A DNA stretch of 64,000 nucleotides from Chloroflexota bacterium. GTDB lineage: Bacteria; Chloroflexota; JAJPGV01. The position numbers and the translations under genes were made by a program. Shown one piece after another: positions 1-13,664 of this stretch (the first letter of the stretch is position 1; every line of letters starts with the position of its first letter). The notes under the pieces are model-generated. The model searched no databases. It saw nothing but the letters and a program-made list of their open reading frames with translations, and was not told where the DNA came from. The stretch is from assembly GCA_021325635.1 (NCBI GenBank), contig JAJPGV010000049.1:1-64000 (forward strand), written 5' to 3'.

Positions 1-765
1 AGGCCCTTTCAGGTGCCCGACGGCCTAACGTTAGATCCCTTGCGCTCTTGGGGTGGAGTAAAAGCCGCATACTACTCCGCCGCATTCGTCCTTCGGTCGG
101 TCATCGCGGACGAACTTGATACAGATCCTGAAGAAATCGATGTGAGCAATGTGCGCCAGGTGGAACTCGCCGATGGAACTCGAGCAGGTGAAATCGTGCT
201 CAATGACCATCTTCCAAACGGCGCCGGTTACGTTGCGTGGGTGAGCCAAAACTGGCACGCAGTCCTCGCCGGATCTGTTGACCTCAATGCTCCTGCGAAT
301 AAGCCGGCTGGGGCGCTGATTACTCCGGAGCATCGGGCCAGCTGTGAGTCGTCCGGGTATGACTGTCTCCGGCAGTACCGAAACATGAGCTATCACGGGC
401 TCCTCGATTGGCGCCTTGGGCTTACCCTACTTCGCTGCCTCGGATCACCGAACTTTGTCGCCGGGCTGGACGGCAACTTCGGGGTTCCGGATCTCGACGG
501 CTGGATGACGTTTGCATTCCAGCGCCGGGATTCCTTCTGCCAAACCTTCAGCTGTGCAGCACATGACTTCGGACCGTTGCCTGGTTTCACATTCGGGCCC
601 CTTGCCACCCCGGTCGTGATCATCCATCCGCTGTGGGATTTCCGTAGACCGGTAGGGATCCTCGCTGAGGCTGTGGCTGAATGTGGAGCTCAGCCGGGAC
701 GCTTTCTCGATACTTTCAACTTGCTTCGGAGGGAAAGCTGGTGCTACCAGCTACTGGGGCGCTGA
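1..765 (+). CDS. DUF1998/MZB-domain protein (DrmB-like), C-terminal fragment; open at window start
   Basis: Frame open from base 1; 'IVLNDHLPNGAGYV' resembles DUF1998 C-termini of DISARM DrmB/helicase-associated proteins. Confidence 0.65.
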   Translation, partial: RPFQVPDGLTLDPLRSWGGVKAAYYSAAFVLRSVIADELDTDPEEIDVSNVRQVELADGTRAGEIVLNDHLPNGAGYVAWVSQNWHAVLAGSVDLNAPANKPAGALITPEHRASCESSGYDCLRQYRNMSYHGLLDWRLGLTLLRCLGSPNFVAGLDGNFGVPDLDGWMTFAFQRRDSFCQTFSCAAHDFGPLPGFTFGPLATPVVIIHPLWDFRRPVGILAEAVAECGAQPGRFLDTFNLLRRESWCYQLLGR

Positions 766-1895
766 AGCCGGGGGAATTACAGACTCCGCTCCACATCGCG
801 CCACTGCGCGCCGTGTCGCCCAGTCATTTCACATCTTTGCAGACTTGCGCCTTGAAAGAGGTGTGGGCAGGCAACGGCAACTCACCGCTCTTGCCACCGA
901 GCCCTGCCGCCCATCTCGGTTCGATCGTTCACAAGCTGCTTGAGGAGGCAGGACAGGGTAAGTTCGCCACCACCGGCGCTGCGGGAATAGCAGAGCGCTG
1001 GTGCGAGCTCTTGGCGGCGACGGAGGACCGATTGCAGCAGCGCTGGCTCGACAGGCACCTGATCCCGCTCCAATCGTCCGTGCCACAGTTTGAAGTCCGG
1101 CGTCTTCAAGCGTGTAAAGCTGCCGGGGTTCTGAACGACCGTAGGAAGGAACACGAAGGTTCCGGGGCGACGGTGGATCCTGCTTATGGATTCGAGCTTC
1201 CGTTGGAATCGTCGGATGGCCTGATCAGAGGCAGAATCGATGCCATTCTGCCTTCGCCGGAGGGCCCCATACTCCAGGATTACAAATCGGGAGCCATCTT
1301 TGAGATCGCCGGCTCGGATGAGCTGGTCCTCAAGAACGAGTACGCCGACCAGCTCAAGATCTATGGCGCCCTGTACCATGAACGGACAGGAGTTTGGCCG
1401 CACCGGCTTGAGGTCCTTCCGGTTTCCACGGCCCCCTACGAGGTCTCCTTCACCCCAGCGGAATGCGAGGAGCTGGCTCACGCGGCAAGAGCGGCCGTGG
1501 CCAAGGTCAACGACCTAATCGCAACGTGTAACGGCCATGAGCTGGAAGCCAGCTTGGCTAATCCTTCACCTTCAGCCTGCTGCTATTGTCCATACCGGCC
1601 GGCCTGCCATGCGTACAGCTCGGCCACACAGCCGGCCATTGGTAGCTGGCCGGCAGACGCCTCGGGTGAGTTTCGTGAGCTGCGGCTCCTGGGCAACGGT
1701 AAACGCCTCCTCTTACTTTCGAGCGGGGAAGCTCAGCTCGCAATCCGCGGTCTGAGCTCCGACCCGCAACGGCATCCCGCCCTGTCGTTCCTGCAGGAAG
1801 GCGACGAAGTCGGTGCCTACTCGCTCAAACCAGCCGGCCCGGGTTCTTTCGCGGAAGGACCTCTGTCCGTCATCTACCGACAGGCGAAAACTTAG
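681..1895 (+). CDS. PD-(D/E)XK nuclease family protein (RecB/Cas4-like)
   Basis: 'IRGRIDAILPSPEGPILQDYKSG' nuclease core, then QLKIYGALY and C-terminal Cys cluster CCYCPYRPAC; start overlaps upstream gene. Confidence 0.75.
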   Translation: MWSSAGTLSRYFQLASEGKLVLPATGALKPGELQTPLHIAPLRAVSPSHFTSLQTCALKEVWAGNGNSPLLPPSPAAHLGSIVHKLLEEAGQGKFATTGAAGIAERWCELLAATEDRLQQRWLDRHLIPLQSSVPQFEVRRLQACKAAGVLNDRRKEHEGSGATVDPAYGFELPLESSDGLIRGRIDAILPSPEGPILQDYKSGAIFEIAGSDELVLKNEYADQLKIYGALYHERTGVWPHRLEVLPVSTAPYEVSFTPAECEELAHAARAAVAKVNDLIATCNGHELEASLANPSPSACCYCPYRPACHAYSSATQPAIGSWPADASGEFRELRLLGNGKRLLLLSSGEAQLAIRGLSSDPQRHPALSFLQEGDEVGAYSLKPAGPGSFAEGPLSVIYRQAKT

Positions 1896-2703
1896 AGGTC
1901 GTAGCACAGCCGCGAGCAAGCGGACATGCGAGACAGCTCGGGTGAACCCGCGTGCAAACGATGTTGCCTAGGTCCAGCAGCGCATAGAGTATGTGCCTTC
2001 CCTGACCGTGAGCTATCGCGCGGCCGAATAGCTGACCAACAATCTCGCGAACGCGGGCGTTCTTGCGCAGCTCACCACGGACAACTGTTATGCCTGCGTA
2101 ACGGCTAATTACGCGACTTATGTTGCCGTCCACTGGCGCTGCGGGCCGTTCGAGCGAAACAGCGACTGCCCCCGCTAGGTACTGGCCTAGAACGCATACA
2201 TCGTCGACACCCGCCATCACCACTCGTGCGGCTTGTCTGAGCTTTCTAAGGCGCTGGTTTGGAAGGCCGAGGCCTGCGACGATTTTCAATACGGCTTCAT
2301 CGGACAGCGCGTTGAGCGCCGCGGCGGTCGGAGCCACGAGGATGAGCTGCTCGTAAACGGGAGCTACTGCCGGCGCCCTGGTTTTTTGGAGAAGAACCTC
2401 CGCCACGAGTAGCTCGTAGAGGTCCGCGCTTCGACGCCAGGGATATTCGACGCGATTACTCTGGCCCCATTGTTGCAAGCCCTCAAATAGGGATTCGACG
2501 CCGAATGCGCCGAGTCCCGGTTGCTCGGCTGGTACTAGCTGCCTGGCGGCTTTCTCGGAGTGCTTGCTATCATCGGGGCGTTTTGAGCGTGCGGATGGAA
2601 CTGTAGTGCTAGAGTATCCTCGGCCGGTTCTCAGCTTGTTTTCGGGCTGCGGTGGAATGGACCTAGGCTTTGAAAGGGCTGGCTTCGACGTGCGGCTAGC
2701 CAT
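1870..2703 (-). CDS. HhH-GPD DNA glycosylase, MutY/Mig-like (candidate T/G mismatch glycosylase); true start probably near 2560
   Basis: 'YPWRRSADLYELLVAEVLLQKT', HhH 'LGQYLAGAV...APVDGNISRVISRY', 4Fe-4S C-x6-C-x2-C-x5-C (CTRVHPSCLACPLARGC). Confidence 0.8.
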   Translation of the reverse strand: MASRTSKPALSKPRSIPPQPENKLRTGRGYSSTTVPSARSKRPDDSKHSEKAARQLVPAEQPGLGAFGVESLFEGLQQWGQSNRVEYPWRRSADLYELLVAEVLLQKTRAPAVAPVYEQLILVAPTAAALNALSDEAVLKIVAGLGLPNQRLRKLRQAARVVMAGVDDVCVLGQYLAGAVAVSLERPAAPVDGNISRVISRYAGITVVRGELRKNARVREIVGQLFGRAIAHGQGRHILYALLDLGNIVCTRVHPSCLACPLARGCATTSKFSPVGR

Positions 2704-3871
2704 CGACCTAGATGATGCCGCAAGGAAAACTTACGAAGCCCACCACAACGGCACGGTTCTGCCGGGCGACCTTTCCAGGATGTCCGCCAAGCAGATTGGT
2801 GACGAGTGGGACAAGATCAGCCGCGAGCCTCCGATAGGAATCATTGGCGGGCCCCCTTGCCAATATTTTTCCGCAGCTAACAGGCATTCGAAAGAAGATG
2901 ATCCCCGCCGCGATCTGCCGAGGCATTACGCAGAGATCATTCGCGGTCTGAACCGCCGCTATGGCCTTTATTTTTTCGTATTCGAGAACGTTGTGGGTTT
3001 GACTCAGACGGCGCACAAGGACGACTACGCTTCATTCCTCGCCCTGTTCGAAGGTGCCGGTTTCCGCTGTTTCAAACAGGTGCTCGACGCACAACATTTC
3101 GGCGTGCCGCAAATTCGGCCGCGGGTATTCGTGGTGGGCTTGAACCCGGCAAAATGGGACCGCGGTTGTGATTTCCAGCCGCCGGGAGCTACGCGGAAGA
3201 AGCCTCTGACTGTTGCTTCAGTCCTAAACCGCGTCCGAAGACCGCCGAGGTTCTTTGAACGTGGCCTTACGCCAGAGGAGCTGGCTAAGGACTATCACCC
3301 GAATCACTGGACGATGCAGCCAAGGTCGAAGAAGTTCAAAGAAAAGACGCTCACAGACTGGGCGACCAAAGCGCGGTCATTTCGCGTACTAGACCGAAGC
3401 AAACCGAGTTGGACCGTCGCTTACGGCCATCGGGAAATTCACGTACACCCCGATGGTAAGCGGCGAGTGAGCGTTCTCGAGGCCATGCTTTTTCAAGGCT
3501 TCGACAAGGAGTACGTCCTCCACGGGAATCTTTCCGAACAGGTGCGCCAGGTGTCAGATGCTGTGCCGCCCCCGCTTGCGGAAGCGGTCGCTAGGGCCGT
3601 CGCGGTTTCATTGCATTCGGCCTCAACGCCCCAAATGAATCTGGAGGCCGAGCGCTTGCTCATGGAAGCGGCGGTCGACAAGCCGGTCGTGCAGATCATG
3701 CTCGAAGGTGAAACCGTCGAGGCTGCAACTCAAGCGTTTAAAGTGGCCGGCCGGAAGCTTGGTCTGCGCGTGGACGTTCGGGCCGACGGAAGCCATCATT
3801 TATTTGTCAAGGCGGTGCCGCGTCGGCCTCGCAACTCACGACGAAAGGAACCGCCGGCCCTGGCGGCGTAA
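2564..3871 (+). CDS. DNA (cytosine-5-)-methyltransferase
   Basis: Motif I SLFSGCGGMDLGFERAGF, motif IV GGPPCQYFSAANR, FENVVGL, motif VIII QIRPRVFVVG; TTG start. Confidence 0.93.
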   Translation: MLSSGRFERADGTVVLEYPRPVLSLFSGCGGMDLGFERAGFDVRLAIDLDDAARKTYEAHHNGTVLPGDLSRMSAKQIGDEWDKISREPPIGIIGGPPCQYFSAANRHSKEDDPRRDLPRHYAEIIRGLNRRYGLYFFVFENVVGLTQTAHKDDYASFLALFEGAGFRCFKQVLDAQHFGVPQIRPRVFVVGLNPAKWDRGCDFQPPGATRKKPLTVASVLNRVRRPPRFFERGLTPEELAKDYHPNHWTMQPRSKKFKEKTLTDWATKARSFRVLDRSKPSWTVAYGHREIHVHPDGKRRVSVLEAMLFQGFDKEYVLHGNLSEQVRQVSDAVPPPLAEAVARAVAVSLHSASTPQMNLEAERLLMEAAVDKPVVQIMLEGETVEAATQAFKVAGRKLGLRVDVRADGSHHLFVKAVPRRPRNSRRKEPPALAA

Positions 3872-5122
3872 GCGCCGGGGAAGCAAGAGGTCTTCCGCCG
3901 ACCCGCTGCTGGGTGCATTCGGGAGAGTCCCGGCCGTCGAGGGCGGAAAATCTTTCGCTAACCAGGCTTTTACGGCCTTTGCGGTGGCGATGCCTTTGGA
4001 GCGGAGTAGGTCAACAAGATCTCCTCCTGCAAGCACAATGATCGGATGCTGATCATCCCGAATCTCCTCGTATGCCTGTTGCTGGACATATGAGGTAGTG
4101 ACCATCACACCGAACTCTCTGTGCCGAATACGTGAAATCAGGCGCGATGTTTCACGCACGCCGACGCTAGCGCTGGGTGCGTAGCATTTTGCCTCTAGCG
4201 CAAACGTCAGGTGAATTGGATCCGCCGCAGGACCAAGGCTGTACCGACCGATTGCATCTCGGCCACCATCGCGGGTTGGGCGAGTTAGCTCCGAACTCGT
4301 CACGTTTGGGGTAAACATCCTCCACAATAAATCCGCGCATCGTTCGAAGTCGACCGGCCGCTCGCGGAAATGTTCGTGGATTTCAGCAAGCATCCGCAGG
4401 CCCTCTTTGCTCGACGGTAGCTGCTGTTTCTTTGTCCTGTACGAGAGCGTCTTAGGGGCCTGCAAGCGCTGGTACGAACCTGAATTGACCCAGTTCGCCC
4501 AAGCGGGCGGACAGCCAGGTCCCAATCGCTGGTCGTCCTGGAGGGCAGCAAGCCATTTTCGAGGAACTGTCGGAACGTCCAACAATGTGAAAGTGGCGCG
4601 ATAGTTCTGAAACCTGAGCCCACCCACTGTGCGCCAAATCGCTACAAGATCCTCGTCTTGCGAAATCGCGATCCCTCCCGGTGCCGCCAGTCCGCGAAAC
4701 TGAACGTCTCGGCCTGTTCCGATTCTGCTGAAGACGAAGAAGGGTGGGACCGCGAGACGGTCCTCTAGCGTTCCGAGGTGTAGCGCGTCAAAGCTCATCC
4801 GAAGCAGCTCGTTACCGTGGCGGGAAGTGTCGTGAATAGCGCGACCTGGCCGCTTGTTATCGCCGTAGTACTGGAAAATGCCGGTTTCGACATCGAGAAA
4901 GTCCGGCCAATCGGGATCGTCTCCAGTCGAATAGAGCACGGCCATTCGGTAATGTCCCGTCTTAGCTCGGGCCACCCGAAAACCGCCTTGATTACCACAT
5001 GGCATGAGCTTGGCGAGCGGGTCTGCCCTAACGTCTTTGTGCGGGCCTGCGCGGTAGATCGCATCAACCACCAGGTCCGCCTCGCCTAAGGTGCCGAACG
5101 AGAACTCCACTGGTTGGGCCAT
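3836..5122 (-). CDS. Mrr-like restriction endonuclease
   Basis: C-terminal 'TRDGGRDAIGRY...FALEAKCYAPS' (D-ExK) and following Mrr-like region; N-terminal domain with 'LDVETGIFQYYGDNKRPG'. Confidence 0.7.
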   Translation of the reverse strand: MAQPVEFSFGTLGEADLVVDAIYRAGPHKDVRADPLAKLMPCGNQGGFRVARAKTGHYRMAVLYSTGDDPDWPDFLDVETGIFQYYGDNKRPGRAIHDTSRHGNELLRMSFDALHLGTLEDRLAVPPFFVFSRIGTGRDVQFRGLAAPGGIAISQDEDLVAIWRTVGGLRFQNYRATFTLLDVPTVPRKWLAALQDDQRLGPGCPPAWANWVNSGSYQRLQAPKTLSYRTKKQQLPSSKEGLRMLAEIHEHFRERPVDFERCADLLWRMFTPNVTSSELTRPTRDGGRDAIGRYSLGPAADPIHLTFALEAKCYAPSASVGVRETSRLISRIRHREFGVMVTTSYVQQQAYEEIRDDQHPIIVLAGGDLVDLLRSKGIATAKAVKAWLAKDFPPSTAGTLPNAPSSGSAEDLLLPRRLRRQGRRFLSS

Positions 5123-5176
5123 CGGGCTGGACTTTAGATCAGATTGACCGCGCGTCCCACGTCATGCGCTCGTTGC

Positions 5177-5196
5177 AATAGTACACATGTTCTATT
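5177..5196. promoter_or_regulatory. LexA-like palindrome AATAGTACACATGTTCTATT
   Basis: Near-perfect inverted repeat; one mismatch from a GAAC-N4-GTTC core; between divergent endonuclease and helicase genes. Confidence 0.5.
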
Positions 5197-7244
5197 CTGA
5201 GCCAGTGAGCAGGCTCGTCCTGGCAGATTTGAACCCGGCGCAGCACCGTGCCTCCACCTACGGCGAAGGGCCGCTACTGGTGATCGCCGGCGCCGGCACC
5301 GGCAAGACCAAGACCCTGGCGGCGCGGGTCGCCTATCTGATAGATCGAGGGGTCCCTCCGGAGCGTATTCTGCTCCTGACCTTCAGCCGTCGCGCCGCGC
5401 AGGAGATGCTGACTCGAGCCGGACAGCTCGTCGGGCGTGGCCAGGCCTCAAAGGTGTGGGGCGGAACCTTCCATGCGGTGGCCAACCGCCTGCTGCGCGT
5501 GCATGGCCACGCCGTCGGGCTGCCGCCGAACTTCACCGTCCTGGACCAGTCCGATGCTGCTGACCTGATGAACCTGCTCAGGACCGAGCTGGGGCTGGCC
5601 GAAACGAGCCGCCGCTTTCCGAAGAAGGACACCCTGGCGGCGATTTACAGCCGGACGGTCAATACGAATGTGAAGTTGAGCCAGGTGCTCGAGGTGGCCT
5701 TCCCCTGGTGCGCCGACGACATCGAGGGCATGCGCGGCATCTTCCAGGGCTACGTCAAGCGCAAGCGCGAGCAGGCCGTTCTCGACTACGACGATCTGCT
5801 GCTGTTCTGGAAGGCGCTGCTGCACGCGCCGACGATCAGCGACCTGATTGCCGGCAGCTTCGACCACGTGCTGGTGGACGAGTACCAGGACACGAATGCG
5901 TTGCAGGCTGACGTCCTGGTGGCCATGCGGCGCAGCATCGGCAACATCACCGTCGTGGGCGATGACGCCCAGGCCATCTACTCGTTTCGGGCGGCGACGG
6001 TTCGGAACATCCTTGCATTTCCACAACAGTTCCCCGGCGCCGAGATTGTGAAGCTGGAGCAGAACTACCGCTCGATCGCGCCCGTGCTTGCGGTCGCTAA
6101 CGCTGTCATGAGCGAGGCGCACCAGCAATACGACAAGGAGCTGCGGTCCAGACGAACGGGTGAGCAGCGCCCGAGGCTGGTCACGTGCCTGGACGAAACG
6201 CAGCAGGCCCAGGTGGTCTGCGATCGCGTGATCCAACACCTCGAGCAGGGCATCGCGCTCAACCGTCAGGCAGTGCTGTTCCGTACCGGCCACCACAGCG
6301 ACCTGCTCGAGGTCGAGTTGACCAGACGCAACATCCCGTTCGTGAAGTACGGCGGGCTGAAGTTCATCGAGGCCGCGCATGTGAAGGACATGTTGGCCTT
6401 CCTGCGGATCCTGGAGAACCCGGCCGATGATCTGGCGTGGTTTCGTGTGCTGCAACTGCTGGACGGCATGGGGCCGCGACACGCCCAAACTGTCCTGGAC
6501 CAGCTACGTGGCCAGCAAGGACTAGGAGAGGACCGGCCGAACAGCCCTCTGGAGCGCTTTCTCGTGGAGCGGGTGGATGCGCCTCCGGCAGCCGCCGAGC
6601 AACTGGACGAACTCCGGCACGCGCTGCGCGATGCCCGCGCGCTTGGGCCTGGGCAGCGCGTGGAACGGCTGCGGCATTTCTACGACCCCATATTCGAGCG
6701 CGTCTACGACAACGCCGGAGTTCGGGTACGCGATTTGGAGCAGTTGGAGCAGCTGGCCGGAACGTACGCCACCACTCGCGAGTTCCTCACCGACCTGACC
6801 CTCGATCCGCCGTCATCAACCAGCGACCTGGCGGGATCACCGTTGCTGGAAGAGGATTACCTGATCCTCTCAACTATCCATTCGGCCAAAGGGTGCGAAT
6901 GGGATGTGGTCCACGTCATCCACGCCGCCGACGGCAACATCCCGAGCGACATGGCCACCGGCAACGCTGAGGAGATCGATGAGGAGCGCCGGCTGTTCTA
7001 TGTGGCGCTGACGCGAGCTAAGGATTGGCTCCACGTCTACTTCCCGCTGCGCTACTACCACCGCCGCCGTGGCCGCAGTGATGCCCACTCGTACGCGCAG
7101 CTGACGCGCTTCATCTCGCCGAGGGTCAAAGGCCTCTTTGATCTGGAGGCGGTCTACGACGAGCAGCACAGCCCTGAGTCAACGGCATCGGTCTCGGCGC
7201 CTGTGACTGTCGATGCTCTGCTGAACGAGCTCTGGGCAGACTAA
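5187..7244 (+). CDS. UvrD/PcrA-like ATP-dependent DNA helicase; GTG at ~5205 is the likelier start
   Basis: Walker A AGAGTGKTKTLAARV, LVDEYQDTN, VVGDDAQAIYSFRAA, LSTIHSAKGCEW, LFYVALTRAKD. Confidence 0.95.
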   Translation: MFYSEPVSRLVLADLNPAQHRASTYGEGPLLVIAGAGTGKTKTLAARVAYLIDRGVPPERILLLTFSRRAAQEMLTRAGQLVGRGQASKVWGGTFHAVANRLLRVHGHAVGLPPNFTVLDQSDAADLMNLLRTELGLAETSRRFPKKDTLAAIYSRTVNTNVKLSQVLEVAFPWCADDIEGMRGIFQGYVKRKREQAVLDYDDLLLFWKALLHAPTISDLIAGSFDHVLVDEYQDTNALQADVLVAMRRSIGNITVVGDDAQAIYSFRAATVRNILAFPQQFPGAEIVKLEQNYRSIAPVLAVANAVMSEAHQQYDKELRSRRTGEQRPRLVTCLDETQQAQVVCDRVIQHLEQGIALNRQAVLFRTGHHSDLLEVELTRRNIPFVKYGGLKFIEAAHVKDMLAFLRILENPADDLAWFRVLQLLDGMGPRHAQTVLDQLRGQQGLGEDRPNSPLERFLVERVDAPPAAAEQLDELRHALRDARALGPGQRVERLRHFYDPIFERVYDNAGVRVRDLEQLEQLAGTYATTREFLTDLTLDPPSSTSDLAGSPLLEEDYLILSTIHSAKGCEWDVVHVIHAADGNIPSDMATGNAEEIDEERRLFYVALTRAKDWLHVYFPLRYYHRRRGRSDAHSYAQLTRFISPRVKGLFDLEAVYDEQHSPESTASVSAPVTVDALLNELWAD

Positions 7245-7251
7245 CCCTTAG

Positions 7252-7965
7252 TCAGAACAGAGGCAGCGCGTGCTGGTCGGCAGGTGAGGATGCCGCCTGT
7301 CGCAGCTCGGGGCCGTCGTTCTTGACGTCGTTGACCAGACTGGAAACCGGTTCGGCGGTCATGAGTTCGACGGGCAAAGCGGCGAGGCAGCCCATCAAGG
7401 CCACCTCCCCGGCATCGCTCGCCAGCCACAGTGCCTCGTGCTCGGGCTGCAGGATGACCGGCATGCGGTTGTGGATGGGCGCGATCAGATCGTTTGGTGC
7501 CGTGGTGAGGATCGTGCAGGAGATGAGCCATTCGTCGTCGATCTTGCAGGCATCCCAGAGACCTGCGAAGCCGAACAGTGCCCAATCTCGGCGGCCGATG
7601 GCGTACGGCTGTTTGGGCTGGCTGCCGCGCGCCTGCCACTCGTAAAACCACGAGCTGGGGATTATGCAGCGCCGCTTGGCCAGCAGGCTGCGATAGGCGG
7701 AGCGTTCCAGGAGCGTCTCGGATTTCAGATTGATGGGCCTGGGTTTGCTCGGGTCGGACACTGACCAGCTGCTTACCAATCCCCAGCGCATTGGCCGGAT
7801 GACCCTGTCACCTTCTTTCCCGATGGCTACCGCGAGGACATCCTGGCTGGGGGCAATGTTGTAGCGTGGCTTGAACAGCTCCGGGTCCTCGAACCCAGGC
7901 AGCACCCGTGCCGAGAAGCGGGTCTCAGAGAATTCGGGCGTCTCTAAGCCGAACCGGCCACACAC
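7252..7965 (-). CDS. SOS response-associated peptidase (SRAP/HMCES family)
   Basis: MCGRFGLETP N-terminus (catalytic Cys2), PRYNIAPSQDV, RPMRWGLVSSW, CIIPSSWFYEW. Confidence 0.93.
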   Translation of the reverse strand: MCGRFGLETPEFSETRFSARVLPGFEDPELFKPRYNIAPSQDVLAVAIGKEGDRVIRPMRWGLVSSWSVSDPSKPRPINLKSETLLERSAYRSLLAKRRCIIPSSWFYEWQARGSQPKQPYAIGRRDWALFGFAGLWDACKIDDEWLISCTILTTAPNDLIAPIHNRMPVILQPEHEALWLASDAGEVALMGCLAALPVELMTAEPVSSLVNDVKNDGPELRQAASSPADQHALPLF

Positions 7966-8061
7966 CCTGGCGAGTGTACCCGCCGGGACGGAGCTCGTGT
8001 CCTTGTTGCCTTACGATCGGGCTCGTATCCCAAATCGCACGCTCACCGACACTAGCCTTTA

Positions 8062-9051
8062 ATGGTGAGCACGGCTGCCGGCGAGGAACAGGTGCCGACA
8101 TTCGTCGACCCGATGCTGGCCAAGCTCAGCGCCACGCTGCCTAAGGACGACGCCAACTGGGCGTTCGAGATGAAGTGGGATGGCATTCGGGCCATCGTAA
8201 GCGTCGACCACTGGAAGGTGCACATCTGTAGCCGCAACCGCATTGATCGGACGCGCGACTATCCAGAGCTTCAGGGCCTGGGCGAGCAGCTGCGAGATCA
8301 CGGCGTGGTCCTCGACGGTGAGATCGTGGCCTTCGATGAGCACGGGAGGCCGACGTTCGAGGCGTGGCAGCAGCGAGGCGGCTACGAGGGCCGGCGCCGC
8401 ATCGCGCCGGACGGCCAGGTGCCCATCGCCTACGTGATCTTCGACCTCCTGTTCATCGATGGCCGCTCGCTCGAGGGGCTGCCGTATACCGAACGCCGCC
8501 AGCTGCTGGAAAGCCTGAAGCTGCAGGGCGACTACTGGTTGGTCCCACCACATTCGATCGGCGCCGGTCCCCACATGCTTCAGATCAGCCGCGACACAGG
8601 GATGGAGGGTGTCGTGGCGAAGCGCCTCAACAGCCGTTACGAGGCGGGCAAGCGAACCGGCGCCTGGCTGAAGGTCAAGAACCACATGCGCCAGGAGTTC
8701 GTCGTCGCCGGCTGGGTTCCGGGCGAAGGCCGGCGCAGCGGACGTATCGGGGCGCTGGTCATCGGCTACTACGAAGGCGACCATCTGATTTCTGCCGGCA
8801 GCGTCGGGACGGGGTTCACGGATCGGATGCTCGATGAGCTGTCCGAGCAGCTTCGCCCTTTTGCGACCGATCACTCGCCGTTTGCCGCCGGCGAAATCCC
8901 TCGCGGATCCCGCTTCGTGGAGCCACGGCTGGTATGTGAGGTGGAGTTCGCCGAGTGGACGTCCAAGACCGGCCAGCTGCGGCATCCGTCATTCAAAGGA
9001 CTGCGTGCAGATAAGAATCCGCGGGACGTTGTCCGGGAGTATCCGGCTTGA
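8062..9051 (+). CDS. ATP-dependent DNA ligase (LigD ligase-domain type)
   Basis: Adenylation motif FEMKWDGIRAIV, LDGEIVAFD, GVVAKRLNSRYEAGKRTGAWLKVKN. Confidence 0.93.
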   Translation: MVSTAAGEEQVPTFVDPMLAKLSATLPKDDANWAFEMKWDGIRAIVSVDHWKVHICSRNRIDRTRDYPELQGLGEQLRDHGVVLDGEIVAFDEHGRPTFEAWQQRGGYEGRRRIAPDGQVPIAYVIFDLLFIDGRSLEGLPYTERRQLLESLKLQGDYWLVPPHSIGAGPHMLQISRDTGMEGVVAKRLNSRYEAGKRTGAWLKVKNHMRQEFVVAGWVPGEGRRSGRIGALVIGYYEGDHLISAGSVGTGFTDRMLDELSEQLRPFATDHSPFAAGEIPRGSRFVEPRLVCEVEFAEWTSKTGQLRHPSFKGLRADKNPRDVVREYPA

Positions 9052-9094
9052 GCAATGTCAATGGAATCTGGGTGCGGCCACGACTGCTACTCAT

Positions 9095-10059
9095 ATGAAC
9101 CGGTCGACAGAACCGAAGCGGCCGAGCGGCCGACACTCAGCCGGAGTCCTCGTCTATCGCGGCGGGGGCCCCCAGATGGAAGTGCTCCTCGTACATCCGT
9201 CTGGCTGGTACAACAAGAAAGCGCCCTGGAGCATCCCCAAGGGCTTGCCCGGAGAAGGCGAGTCCATGGAGCAAGCAGCGCTACGCGAGACGCTTGAAGA
9301 GGCCGGTGTCGCGCTGGATGGGCCGCTCGTTTCGCTGGAGTTCGTGACCTACAAGGGCGGTAAACAGGTGCACGGCTTTTGCGCGCCCTGCCCGGACGGC
9401 GCTGCCGCATGCTGTGCCTCCTGGGAAGTCGACCGGGCTGAGTTCTTCCCTATCAGCGAGGCGAGGCAGCTGCTGCATCCCAGCCAGCAGGAGTTCCTCG
9501 ACCGGCTGGAGCAGCACCTGAGGCATTCCATGAGCAAGACAGCCGACAGCGAAACTCCGGCTGATGCAGGCAAGCCATCGAACATGACTGAAGAGTCACC
9601 ACTCGTCCAGCGAGTGCTCGCGCTGCTGACCGCGAGTGGCATTGAGTACAAGGTGCTGCGCCATAAGCCAGTGTTCACCAGTGAGCAGGCAGCCGCGGTC
9701 CGCGGTACTCCGCTGGAGGACGGCGCTAAGGCGCTGATCTGCCATGCCGACAAGCAGATGGTGCTAATTGTCGTGCCGGCCAACCTCCAGCTTGACACCC
9801 GCGCATTCAAGAGTGCCTACGGGATCAAGAACCTCCGCATGGCGGCAGCGGACGAAGTCGAGGCGCTCGGCGCCGTTGTCGGTGGGGTGCCGCCCTTCGG
9901 ACAGACATAGACCTACAGACTTATGCGGATGAGGGGATCGCCGCGCGAACTACGTTGTCGTTCAATGCCGGGAGCCGGACCACCTCCATGATCCTTGCCG
10001 CGAAGGACTACCTCCAGATCGAGCAGCCGATCATCGGGCGGTTCGCCGTCGCAGAGTGA
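9095..10059 (+). pseudogene. NUDIX hydrolase fused to YbaK/ProX-type deacylase domain, interrupted by an apparent 1-nt frameshift near 9900
   Basis: Nudix box GLPGEGESMEQAALRETLEEAGV; YbaK region GAKALICHADKQMVLIVVP...GGVPPFG; tail DIDLQTYADEGIAARTTLSFNAGSRTTSMILAAKDYL in another frame to the stop at 10059. Confidence 0.8.
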
Positions 10060-11013: not shown

Positions 11014-11826
11014 ATGGCTGTTAGTTCGCAAGAACTTTTTGATCGCTACAAGGATTGCGTCGGGTGCGTCTTTGTTCTCGACAATAAGGGGGACGAACAC
11101 ACAGGCGCCGCCTTTTACATCGGCGATGGCTATTTCGCAACGGCTCGCCACGTTGTCGACGAGAAGCAATCCATCACCTTGAGCTCACCGACGCAGATGC
11201 TGACGAACACCGGATCCACGCCCAAGCGGATATTGCTTCCCAGCACAGCGCATGCTGACGTAGCGATTATTGAAGGCCAACCCGAGTCCATCCCGATACG
11301 CCACGTCTGGGTCGGCGACAACGTGAAGCAGCTGAAAGAAATCGTCGGAGGCGCTGTCCCCCTGGGTGGTGAGACCGTGGATTGGCTCGATCCGAAGCTG
11401 ATGCTGTCGAAGGCCGTTGCCTTTGGTTATCCGCCCATACCGGTTACGACCACTACCGGGCTTGTCGTGGTCACGACCGAAGTGAATGCCCTGGTCACCA
11501 AATACAACGCACCGCACCAGCACTTTGTCGTCTCCATGATCCCTCGGAAGGGTTTCAGCGGAGGACCTCTGATTAGCGAATACGGCTACTTACTCGGGAT
11601 CATCATTGAGGGTTTGCAGGAGCAGGACCAAGCGCCTGAAACCGGCTTCGCGGTGGCAGTGAGCGTCGATCCCCTTCTGGATCTCCTGTGGGAGCACGGG
11701 ATCAAACTGAGCGGCGAAAACGGTGATCTGCTCGAGCAGCTGTGGAACCCTGGCTTCTATGAGAGCGAGGGGGTTGGGTTTGGCTCTGCCAGTGGGAAGG
11801 CGGAACTTGTAATCGCGTTGTCGTAG
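11014..11826 (+). CDS. Trypsin-like serine protease domain protein
   Basis: Triad context ARHVV (H), HADVAIIE (D), KGFSGGPL (S). Confidence 0.85.
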   Translation: MAVSSQELFDRYKDCVGCVFVLDNKGDEHTGAAFYIGDGYFATARHVVDEKQSITLSSPTQMLTNTGSTPKRILLPSTAHADVAIIEGQPESIPIRHVWVGDNVKQLKEIVGGAVPLGGETVDWLDPKLMLSKAVAFGYPPIPVTTTTGLVVVTTEVNALVTKYNAPHQHFVVSMIPRKGFSGGPLISEYGYLLGIIIEGLQEQDQAPETGFAVAVSVDPLLDLLWEHGIKLSGENGDLLEQLWNPGFYESEGVGFGSASGKAELVIALS

Positions 11827-11852: not shown

Positions 11853-13664
11853 CTAGCCTGCTCCGAACAGGGTTACCCACGTAGCGAAATCGCCGAGGTA
11901 TATCCGAGGCCGGAACTCGTTGACCCACTCACGGTAGGCCTTCAGCAGATTTGATTCGAGATAGGAACGGCTTTGCAGGAGACCAGGGTTTGCGAGGGCC
12001 TGCGAGAGCGGGTCCGATTCATCCAGTAGTTGGGCGAATAGTCGCTCGACGGGTGTTCCGTCCTGGCCGATTTTGAAGAAGAACATGCCGACATGCGGAC
12101 GCTTGCCACGTGCGCCATCCCATTGCAGGAGGGCGATAAGTGCATCGAACTGTTCGAGTAACTCCGCCAGTTGCTCCTCTACGGGTATCCAGGTCTTCAA
12201 CAGGCGGCGTAGACGTTGTGCAAGGTAGAGGTTGGCTCCCCAATTGTTGACGCTCCTGTCCAGTCGGGCTGCTGGGGACCCACGCAGAACAGTGGTGGGA
12301 TGAAGGCGAACCCACAATGGCTCCGGCTGGCCGCCGACGGCTCGGACTCGAACCGTCAGAAGATCGCGGAGCGCCGTGTGTCTTCCGGCCGCCATCATGG
12401 CAATGCCAGCCGTGTACAGGCACAGCAGCGCCGGATAACCCAACAAACCAACCAGGACCGGATCGCCGTCGACATTAGCTGGAGGGGTGAGTTGCGCAAA
12501 GCACATCTGTAGAAGGGGAAGCTCCTGGTCCCCTGCGCCAAAGGTGCCGATGATGGCTACGATCGGCAGAACAGCCTCGAGCGCCGTCTCCAACCGGCTT
12601 AGTCGATCACGGTAGAACCTGTCGTCGAAGTCGGGTTCATCCCTGAGGCCATACGGCTGGTTGGTCTGACTCCGGATCTCAGCGACGACGCCATCGCAGA
12701 GATGCGTGAGCAGCTCGCGAAGCTCGATGCGATTGGTACCCGGTGCACGCAGAAGGCGCTTTGCCTGAGCTAGAGCGAGGGCTGGGCTCACGGGCGATTG
12801 CGCCCGCGCTGACGCAAGGTCGAGCACGTGTTGCTCGATTCCCGTCCATAGCGCATCAGCACTTACCCCGCTTATGACCTGGGCATCCCGCCGCTGGATG
12901 ACATCCTGCGACAGCGGCGACGCCGTAGTGTGCACGAGCCAAAACCATGAGTACCGTCGCGTGGCGCCACGCATAAGGACCTCGCGCAGTGCGATATCCC
13001 AGTCCGCCGACCAGCCGCATACGACGGCCCCGTACTCGTCGAACACCCGTTGAAGCAGCCGTTTCATAGCGGGTGCATAGACGCTGAGCTCGCCCTGTGT
13101 ATTGAGCAGGCGCGTATCGAGGTAGTCGCCGCTCACCTTAATCACCGTGCATCGAGCCTTATCCAGGGGCTCCGCCCCGCGGATGAGATCTGGATGGTAA
13201 ATAACTGACGGTACGACGCCCTCGTCCACGAGCGCGGTTTCATGCAACCGTTCCTGGTTCGTGGTGACGATCACACGGATATAGCCGTCCCGGGACAAGC
13301 GGGCGATAGCTCTGTGCGCCTCCGTCGGCATCTTCAAGCCCTGTTCGCGCTCCTCCGGGGTTGGCTCAAAAAACGGTTTCAGCAGAGCCTGGCGCTCAGC
13401 CGTAGTGCGGGCAAGCCGCCGCATAACCTCGCCATAAATCGCCTCTCCGATGTTGCCTCTCCACCATTCAGGGGGGTCGCTGCCGGCGTCCGCCCCATTT
13501 CGCTTCGCGTAGGTGCGGATCAGCTGATCCATGACTTGCTGGCCTGTCGGAATGCCGGCTTCGCGCGAAATTCCAGAGCCAGTCAGTGCGACGTACGTTC
13601 CAGGGCTGTGGAATACGGCGAGGGCCGCATTAACAATCGCTTCGCCGGTGAATCCGCTAGCCAC
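11853..13664 (-). CDS. SIR2-like domain protein
   Basis: GSGISREAGIPTGQQV motif, VIVTTNQERLHE, VIKVSGDYLDTR, VVCGWSADWD. Confidence 0.85.
   Translation of the reverse strand: MASGFTGEAIVNAALAVFHSPGTYVALTGSGISREAGIPTGQQVMDQLIRTYAKRNGADAGSDPPEWWRGNIGEAIYGEVMRRLARTTAERQALLKPFFEPTPEEREQGLKMPTEAHRAIARLSRDGYIRVIVTTNQERLHETALVDEGVVPSVIYHPDLIRGAEPLDKARCTVIKVSGDYLDTRLLNTQGELSVYAPAMKRLLQRVFDEYGAVVCGWSADWDIALREVLMRGATRRYSWFWLVHTTASPLSQDVIQRRDAQVISGVSADALWTGIEQHVLDLASARAQSPVSPALALAQAKRLLRAPGTNRIELRELLTHLCDGVVAEIRSQTNQPYGLRDEPDFDDRFYRDRLSRLETALEAVLPIVAIIGTFGAGDQELPLLQMCFAQLTPPANVDGDPVLVGLLGYPALLCLYTAGIAMMAAGRHTALRDLLTVRVRAVGGQPEPLWVRLHPTTVLRGSPAARLDRSVNNWGANLYLAQRLRRLLKTWIPVEEQLAELLEQFDALIALLQWDGARGKRPHVGMFFFKIGQDGTPVERLFAQLLDESDPLSQALANPGLLQSRSYLESNLLKAYREWVNEFRPRIYLGDFATWVTLFGAG

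What the first reader, a model, noticed from the sequence alone, without database searches (positions are those of the whole stretch)
1..7244. DISARM-like defence cluster with non-canonical parts: DUF1998 + PD-(D/E)XK + Mig-type glycosylase + C5 methylase + Mrr-like nuclease + UvrD
Sequence shows these six products back-to-back with overlapping ends. Class 2 DISARM is known to combine a C5 methylase with DrmA helicase, DrmB (DUF1998) and DrmC (PLD nuclease). Here a PD-(D/E)XK protein follows the DUF1998 gene, and a mismatch glycosylase plus an Mrr-like nuclease are interleaved. That could be a new DISARM variant or an RM/DISARM hybrid. The helicase expected upstream lies outside the window.
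Basis: partly seen in the sequence, partly recalled or inferred. Interest (0 to 1): 0.75.

Follow-up and report, generated by a model that had tools for sequence, protein, structure and literature searches.

The report
Druantia defence locus with methylase, repair
The first 5 kb of this window is the tail of a bacterial anti-phage defence system of the Druantia family (not DISARM), which comes with its own DNA-marking enzyme, an enzyme predicted to repair the mutations that marking causes, and a neighbouring enzyme predicted to cut wrongly marked DNA.

Summary
All six ORFs exist, but two are on the minus strand, and window base 1 is a contig end, so the first gene is only a C-terminal fragment.

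It is Druantia, not DISARM. The fragment matches DruE (PADLOC E=4e-57), with no DrmB hit. The closest complete relative (68% identity) is a single 1917-aa DruE with helicase and DUF1998 fused, in a DruF4-DruL4-DruE-DruK-[glycosylase::C5-methylase] locus.

- PD-(D/E)XK gene: DruK, a RecB/Cas4-type nuclease with four invariant Cys.
- C5 methylase: DruM, 45-49% identical to six methylases, all in Druantia loci (found through DruE), at most 33% to 25 others.
- Glycosylase: Mig-type. Methylase-bearing DruE loci carry a T:G-repair gene (Mig, EndoIII-like or Vsr) in 18/25 cases; methylase-free loci 0/30.
- "Mrr" gene: an AspBHI orthologue (5mC-dependent nuclease), mC pocket kept. 10/13 orthologues sampled have a C5 methylase within 8 kb; one (Bradyrhizobium) lies directly before DruM-Vsr-DruF-DruE-DruK.
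- UvrD: an unrelated neighbour.

Verdict: a methylase-bearing type II/IV-intermediate Druantia, a new variant of a known kind. No function was tested here.

The parts
1..765 (+). DruE C-terminus (last 254 aa; MZB/DUF1998 region plus a nuclease-like tail domain without catalytic residues), cut by the contig end
   Evidence: PADLOC DruE2 3.8e-57 at positions 1632-1880 of 1887, no DrmB; 68% and 64% identical to DruE of L026 and L016; contig base 1
681..1895 (+). DruK: RecB/Cas4-family PD-(D/E)XK nuclease with four invariant Cys (start may be GTG 741)
   Evidence: PDDEXK_1 1.5e-16, PADLOC DruK 1.4e-20; invariant C56, C300, C303, C309, D187, K202, near-invariant D200; fold like AdnA nuclease, ACE1, Dna2, Cas4
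1870..2703 (-). Mig-type HhH-GPD DNA glycosylase, probable T:G mismatch repair (start may be TTG 2478)
   Evidence: HhH-GPD 7.6e-12; Cys pattern C-x6-C-x2-C-x5-C, catalytic-position Tyr and Asp kept; relatives match 1KEA. The window copy scores higher to MutY structures than to 1KEA and its hairpin is two residues short
2564..3871 (+). DruM: C5 cytosine DNA methylase
   Evidence: DNA_methylase 3.4e-50; DruM2 3.9e-73; 45-49% identical to six methylases in Druantia loci, at most 33% to 25 others
3836..5122 (-). AspBHI orthologue (MspJI family, 5mC-dependent endonuclease), probable companion
   Evidence: RE_AspBHI_N 1.4e-61 and Mrr_cat; 4OC8 392 bits; mC pocket and catalytic residues kept; next to DruM also in Bradyrhizobium
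5187..7244 (+). UvrD/PcrA-like helicase: neighbour, judged NOT part of the system
   Evidence: no counterpart in relatives; GC step at 5 kb

Best explanation
This is the right-hand end of a Druantia system intermediate between types II and IV (inferred full gene set DruF-DruL-DruE-DruK plus the C5 methylase DruM), with an added T:G mismatch glycosylase and, beside it, an AspBHI-type 5mC-dependent nuclease. Proposed working: DruM methylates a specific cytosine motif in host DNA as a self mark (enzyme class shown by sequence; role inferred). Mig repairs the T:G mismatches that arise when 5mC deaminates (inferred from residues and association). The DruF/DruL/DruE complex engages phage DNA that lacks the mark or exposes ssDNA, and DruE translocates (inferred from DruE of Druantia III, PMC13192584). 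DruK is the likely DNA-cutting subunit, because DruE's own C-terminal nuclease-like domain has no PD-(D/E)XK residues (inferred). AspBHI cuts DNA carrying 5mC in contexts other than DruM's, so that phages methylated to escape are still attacked (inferred, least certain).
For: DruE models 3.8e-57, DruK 1.4e-20, DruM2 3.9e-73. Closest complete relative L026: DruF4 9.8e-153, DruL4 8.3e-46, DruK, glycosylase::methylase fusion and a 1917-aa DruE scoring 1808 bits to DruE2. DruM lineage confined to Druantia loci in what was sampled. T:G-repair gene in 18/25 methylase-bearing DruE loci against 0/30 without methylase; repair type and methylase lineage exchanged between sister DruE loci. AspBHI pocket and active site intact; C5 methylase near 10 of 13 AspBHI homologues and AspBHI-DruM-Vsr-DruF-DruE-DruK in Bradyrhizobium. 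The five genes share a low-GC block.
Against: The window lacks DruF, DruL and most of DruE, and they were not found in the assembly. 30 of 55 DruE loci have no methylase in the fetched flanks, so DruM is not essential to the family. 7 of 25 methylase loci have no detected repair gene. The window's glycosylase has a shortened hairpin. Only 1 of 39 other DruE genomes or records tested has AspBHI. The models used for counting were seeded from the same loci.
Confidence: 0.75

Rival explanations
1. DISARM variant or DISARM/restriction-modification hybrid: C5 methylase, DrmB and nuclease acting with an upstream DrmA.
For: C5 methylase, DUF1998 region and nuclease occur together; DrmMII models match the methylase weakly (4.8e-40).
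Against: No DrmB match; relatives have helicase and DUF1998 in one DruE gene scoring 1808 bits to DruE2 and 32 to DrmA; the nuclease is a RecB/Cas4 type, not PLD; DruM beats DrmMII; DruF4 and DruL4 stand upstream in relatives.
Confidence: 0.02
2. Two unrelated units side by side: a Druantia end (DruE-DruK) and a stand-alone methylase/glycosylase/AspBHI cassette that landed next to it.
For: AspBHI homologues usually have a C5 methylase nearby whatever the system (10 of 13); defence genes cluster in islands; orientations alternate.
Against: The window methylase belongs to a lineage found only in Druantia loci here and is at most 33% identical to AspBHI-linked methylases; sister loci L025 and L026 keep DruE-DruK with a convergent glycosylase::methylase gene in the same place. 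For AspBHI alone this rival remains quite possible.
Confidence: 0.15
3. A decayed Druantia remnant: a broken DruE tail with accessory genes kept as an orphan methylase/repair set.
For: DruF and the DruE N-terminus are absent from the assembly; the glycosylase hairpin is shortened; L033 shows a split DruK.
Against: The DruE frame is open up to the contig end, and the DruE-tail, DruK, DruM and AspBHI frames are intact with conserved residues.
Confidence: 0.08

Closest known systems
Druantia type IV (PADLOC: DruE, DruF, DruL; PMC8565338)
   Same: DruE; in the closest relatives DruF4 and DruL4 as well.
   Different: Type IV was defined as lacking DruM; this clade has DruM, DruK and a T:G-repair enzyme.
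Druantia type II (DruM-DruF-DruG-DruE)
   Same: C5 methylase DruM with DruF and DruE.
   Different: DruL instead of DruG in relatives; DruK and a repair glycosylase added.
DISARM class 2
   Same: C5 methylase beside a YprA-family helicase with DUF1998.
   Different: Helicase and DUF1998 fused (DruE type); no DrmB, DrmA or PLD nuclease.
AspBHI / MspJI family 5mC-dependent endonucleases
   Same: Full-length homology, same mC pocket and active site.
   Different: Stands beside an apparently active C5 methylase in a Druantia locus; sequence context not known.
Mig.MthI with its C5 methylase, and Dcm-Vsr pairs
   Same: A T:G mismatch repair enzyme encoded beside a C5 methylase.
   Different: Attached to Druantia, and in relatives fused to the methylase on either side.

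Membership tests
Druantia | DruE: large YprA-family SF2 helicase with C-terminal DUF1998 | tested here: met
   C-terminus matches DruE 3.8e-57; the helicase part lies beyond the contig end but is present in L026
Druantia type IV | DruF and DruL upstream of DruE | tested here: inconclusive
   present in L026, L034; outside the window and not found in the assembly
Druantia type IV | absence of DruM (original definition, PMC8565338) | tested here: not met
   DruM2 3.9e-73
Druantia type II | DruM present | tested here: met
Druantia type II | DruG present | not tested
   no DruG hit among the relatives' genes scanned; the window's upstream side is missing
DISARM | separate DrmB gene carrying DUF1998 | tested here: not met
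   no DrmB match; fused in relatives
DISARM | PLD nuclease DrmC | tested here: not met
   the nuclease is PDDEXK_1/DruK
DISARM | DrmA helicase | tested here: inconclusive
   upstream lies beyond the contig; relatives have DruE
MspJI/AspBHI family | SRA-like domain with mC pocket and Mrr_cat active site | tested here: met
MspJI/AspBHI family | 5mC-dependent cleavage | not testable with these tools
   needs biochemistry
Mig-type T:G mismatch glycosylase | HhH-GPD fold, 4Fe-4S cysteines, catalytic-position Tyr and Asp | tested here: met
   hairpin two residues short, MutY structures score higher
Mig-type T:G mismatch glycosylase | T:G substrate | not testable with these tools
   needs biochemistry

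The most novel reading that the evidence does not exclude
A recurrent 'mark, mend and police' module (C5 methylase, a T:G mismatch-repair enzyme of exchangeable origin, and an AspBHI-type 5mC-dependent nuclease) plugs into otherwise unrelated ATPase/helicase defence systems (Druantia, MZA). AspBHI would be an integral arm that destroys phage DNA methylated in the wrong context.
Probability: 0.3. Interest if true: 0.65.

Novelty: new variant of a known kind. Interest (0 to 1): 0.45.

Why it matters
I found no known mechanism for methylase-bearing Druantia systems (types II and IV). The repeated attachment of T:G-repair enzymes to DruM, exchanged between close relatives and found fused to the methylase on either side, implies that DruM really methylates the host chromosome. 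That points to methylation-based self-recognition, which is directly testable. The link to a 5mC-dependent nuclease raises a concrete compatibility question (DruM motif against AspBHI context) and suggests an anti-escape role similar to BREX paired with type IV restriction. Rules that require type IV to lack DruM would misclassify this clade.

Tried and rejected
DISARM: rejected.

UvrD as a component: rejected.

MZB Pfam search in the own genome: no hit; the DruE model was needed.

DruK alone as query in genome contigs gave nothing, so DruE tails were used.

Reverse search with DruM (does this methylase lineage occur without Druantia?): 1/400 phylum genomes, which is the window itself, and none in plasmids or viral contigs; too rare to count independently.

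HhH::DruM fusion in plasmids: none. AspBHI in viral contigs: none. One AspBHI hit in a record named Bacteriophage sp., not followed.

Foldseek of the DruE tail: only weak MrfA similarity. The 'inactivated Vsr' reading rests on topology (alpha-beta-beta-beta-alpha-beta) and on PMC12458937, not on a confident structural hit.

Caveats: the Vsr, Mig and DruM models used for counting were seeded from the same loci; flanks are about 10 kb and some contigs are short; AspBHI homologues were not sampled evenly.

Full report
What is there. Window base 1 is the first base of contig C17. ORFs: 1-765 (+, open at the contig end), 681-1895 (+), 1870-2703 (-), 2564-3871 (+), 3836-5122 (-), 5187-7244 (+). Domains: weak MZB; PDDEXK_1; HhH-GPD; DNA_methylase; RE_AspBHI_N + Mrr_cat; UvrD. 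The first five form one block of 0.57-0.61 GC. From 5 kb GC is 0.63-0.65, and the window from 20 to 40 kb averages 0.67.

The first gene is DruE, not DrmB. PADLOC models place the 254 aa at the extreme C-terminus of DruE (3.8e-57, positions 1632-1880 of 1887) with no DrmB match. A scan of genome contigs with an alignment of the fragment gave 40 relatives. The best, a Thermomicrobiales MAG (L026, 68%), has a single 1917-aa gene scoring 1808 bits to DruE2 and only 32 to DrmA. It is preceded by DruF4 (9.8e-153) and DruL4 (8.3e-46) and followed by a DruK-type nuclease and a methylase. The window's own upstream genes lie beyond the contig end and were not found in the assembly; the DruF search rang in no control genome, so its negative is weak.

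DruK. The PD-(D/E)XK gene matches PADLOC DruK (1.4e-20). Across 15 homologues the four cysteines C56/C300/C303/C309 and H84, D187, K202, Q224 and Y228 are invariant and D200 nearly so, the pattern of Fe-S RecB-family nucleases (AddB, Cas4; established knowledge). The AF2 model (pLDDT 86) matches the AdnA nuclease domain, an Argonaute-associated Cas4 protein, Dna2 and Cas4. DruE's own tail ends in an alpha-beta-beta-beta-alpha-beta domain with a conserved HPLW motif and no PD-(D/E)XK residues. This agrees with the published view that type I/II DruE carries an inactivated Vsr-like nuclease (PMC12458937). That DruK supplies the cutting activity is my inference.

DruM and T:G repair. The methylase is 45-49% identical to six methylases, all in DruF-DruL-DruE or DruL-DruE loci (L034, L037, L046, L047, L048, L050), and at most 33% to 25 other C5 methylases, including those beside AspBHI. 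Because those six loci were found through DruE this is ascertained, but the reverse search found no other member of the lineage in 400 genomes of the phylum or in 72,556 plasmids. Of 55 DruE loci, 25 have a methylase in the fetched flanks and 18 of these also have a T:G-repair gene; none of the 30 without methylase has one (Fisher 3e-9). The repair enzyme varies: Mig-type, separate (window, L034, L037, L050, L055); Mig fused behind DruM (L048); an EndoIII-type glycosylase fused in front of DruM (L016/L025, L026); Vsr (ten loci, including L014 and L051). On the DruE tree the window is sister to L026 and next to L016, which carry the EndoIII-type fusion and a different methylase lineage (the pairing with L026 has 85% SH-aLRT, the wider group 98%). 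The methylase-repair unit has therefore been exchanged while DruE-DruK stayed. Repeated recruitment of unrelated 5mC-deamination repair enzymes is best explained if DruM methylates the host genome.

AspBHI. The minus-strand gene is an orthologue of AspBHI (392 bits over nearly the full length). Pocket residues equivalent to W69, D71, Y82, Y83 and D85 (PMC4499157) and the catalytic D...EAK are kept in the window, and also in eight further homologues except that the Y83 position is F or W in some. Close AspBHI homologues are rare: 3 of 398 and 3 of 400 genomes. Of 13 loci examined, 10 have a C5 methylase within the fetched flanks, seven of them within about 2 kb and three at 6-8 kb; several also have Vsr, and several lie in MZA-type loci. 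In Bradyrhizobium ivorense AspBHI lies directly upstream of DruM-Vsr-DruF-DruE-DruK. Against integral membership: of 39 other DruE genomes or records tested only that one has it. Adjacency of MspJI to a cytosine methylase, thought inactive, was noted before (PMC3874153). I treat AspBHI as a probable companion, not as a core gene.

UvrD has no full-length counterpart beside any relative and belongs, by composition, with the following chromosomal genes (SRAP, ATP-dependent ligase).

How it probably works. DruM marks host DNA and Mig limits the mutational cost. DruF/DruL/DruE recognise and engage unmarked or ssDNA-containing phage DNA, and DruK cuts. AspBHI attacks DNA methylated in other contexts. 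DruE of Druantia III loads on ssDNA-containing intermediates, and its authors propose that subtype-specific partners set the trigger (PMC13192584). Every step in the window itself is inferred from sequence and neighbourhood; none was tested.

Novelty. Type IV was defined by lacking DruM (PMC8565338) and type II by DruM-F-G-E (PMC13316683). This clade combines DruL with DruM and adds DruK and a repair enzyme. PADLOC already holds DruK models, so DruK as a Druantia protein is not new. I found no paper in the held library describing T:G repair enzymes or AspBHI with Druantia, but most subscription papers are missing from it. Hence: new variant of a known kind, moderate interest.

Noticed in passing
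window 11856-13664 (-) and 11014-11826 (+): A SIR2-like candidate defence protein (PADLOC PDC-S65, 2.3e-149) next to a trypsin-like peptidase, in a second low-GC block at 11-18 kb.
   Followed up: partly
window 7252-9910: SRAP (HMCES-like) protein, ATP-dependent DNA ligase, and an ORF joining NUDIX and tRNA-editing domains follow UvrD: a DNA-repair neighbourhood.
   Followed up: no
L016 1792-3636, L026 11477-13330, L048 10853-12712: DNA glycosylase fused to a C5 methylase: EndoIII-type in front (L016, L026), Mig-type behind (L048), all beside DruE.
   Followed up: partly
L091, L089, L073 (Rhizobium, Ensifer, Thalassospira plasmids): AspBHI homologues sit with MZA-type defence genes (Z1, AIPR, PD-(D/E)XK) and a C5 methylase, in L091 also Vsr.
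   Followed up: partly
L057 12482-16138: Z1 and DUF4420 genes (MZA-like) lie between DruK and the DruM-Vsr pair of an Anaeromyxobacter Druantia locus.
   Followed up: no
L033 10729-11942: DruK split into two frames in a SAR202 MAG: frameshift or sequencing error.
   Followed up: no
PDB 9WAE and six further entries: A solved 1970-aa chain named only 'Helicase' matches the L026 DruE at 762 bits, so a type I/II/IV-like DruE structure probably exists; no paper for it was found in the held library.
   Followed up: no
MT836681.1 922-2073 (-): A 9-kb record named Bacteriophage sp. encodes an AspBHI homologue 49% identical to the window's.
   Followed up: no
PADLOC PDLC03398: This model, labelled 'Type II nicking endonuclease', matches Mig-type DNA glycosylases; the label looks misleading.
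   Followed up: no
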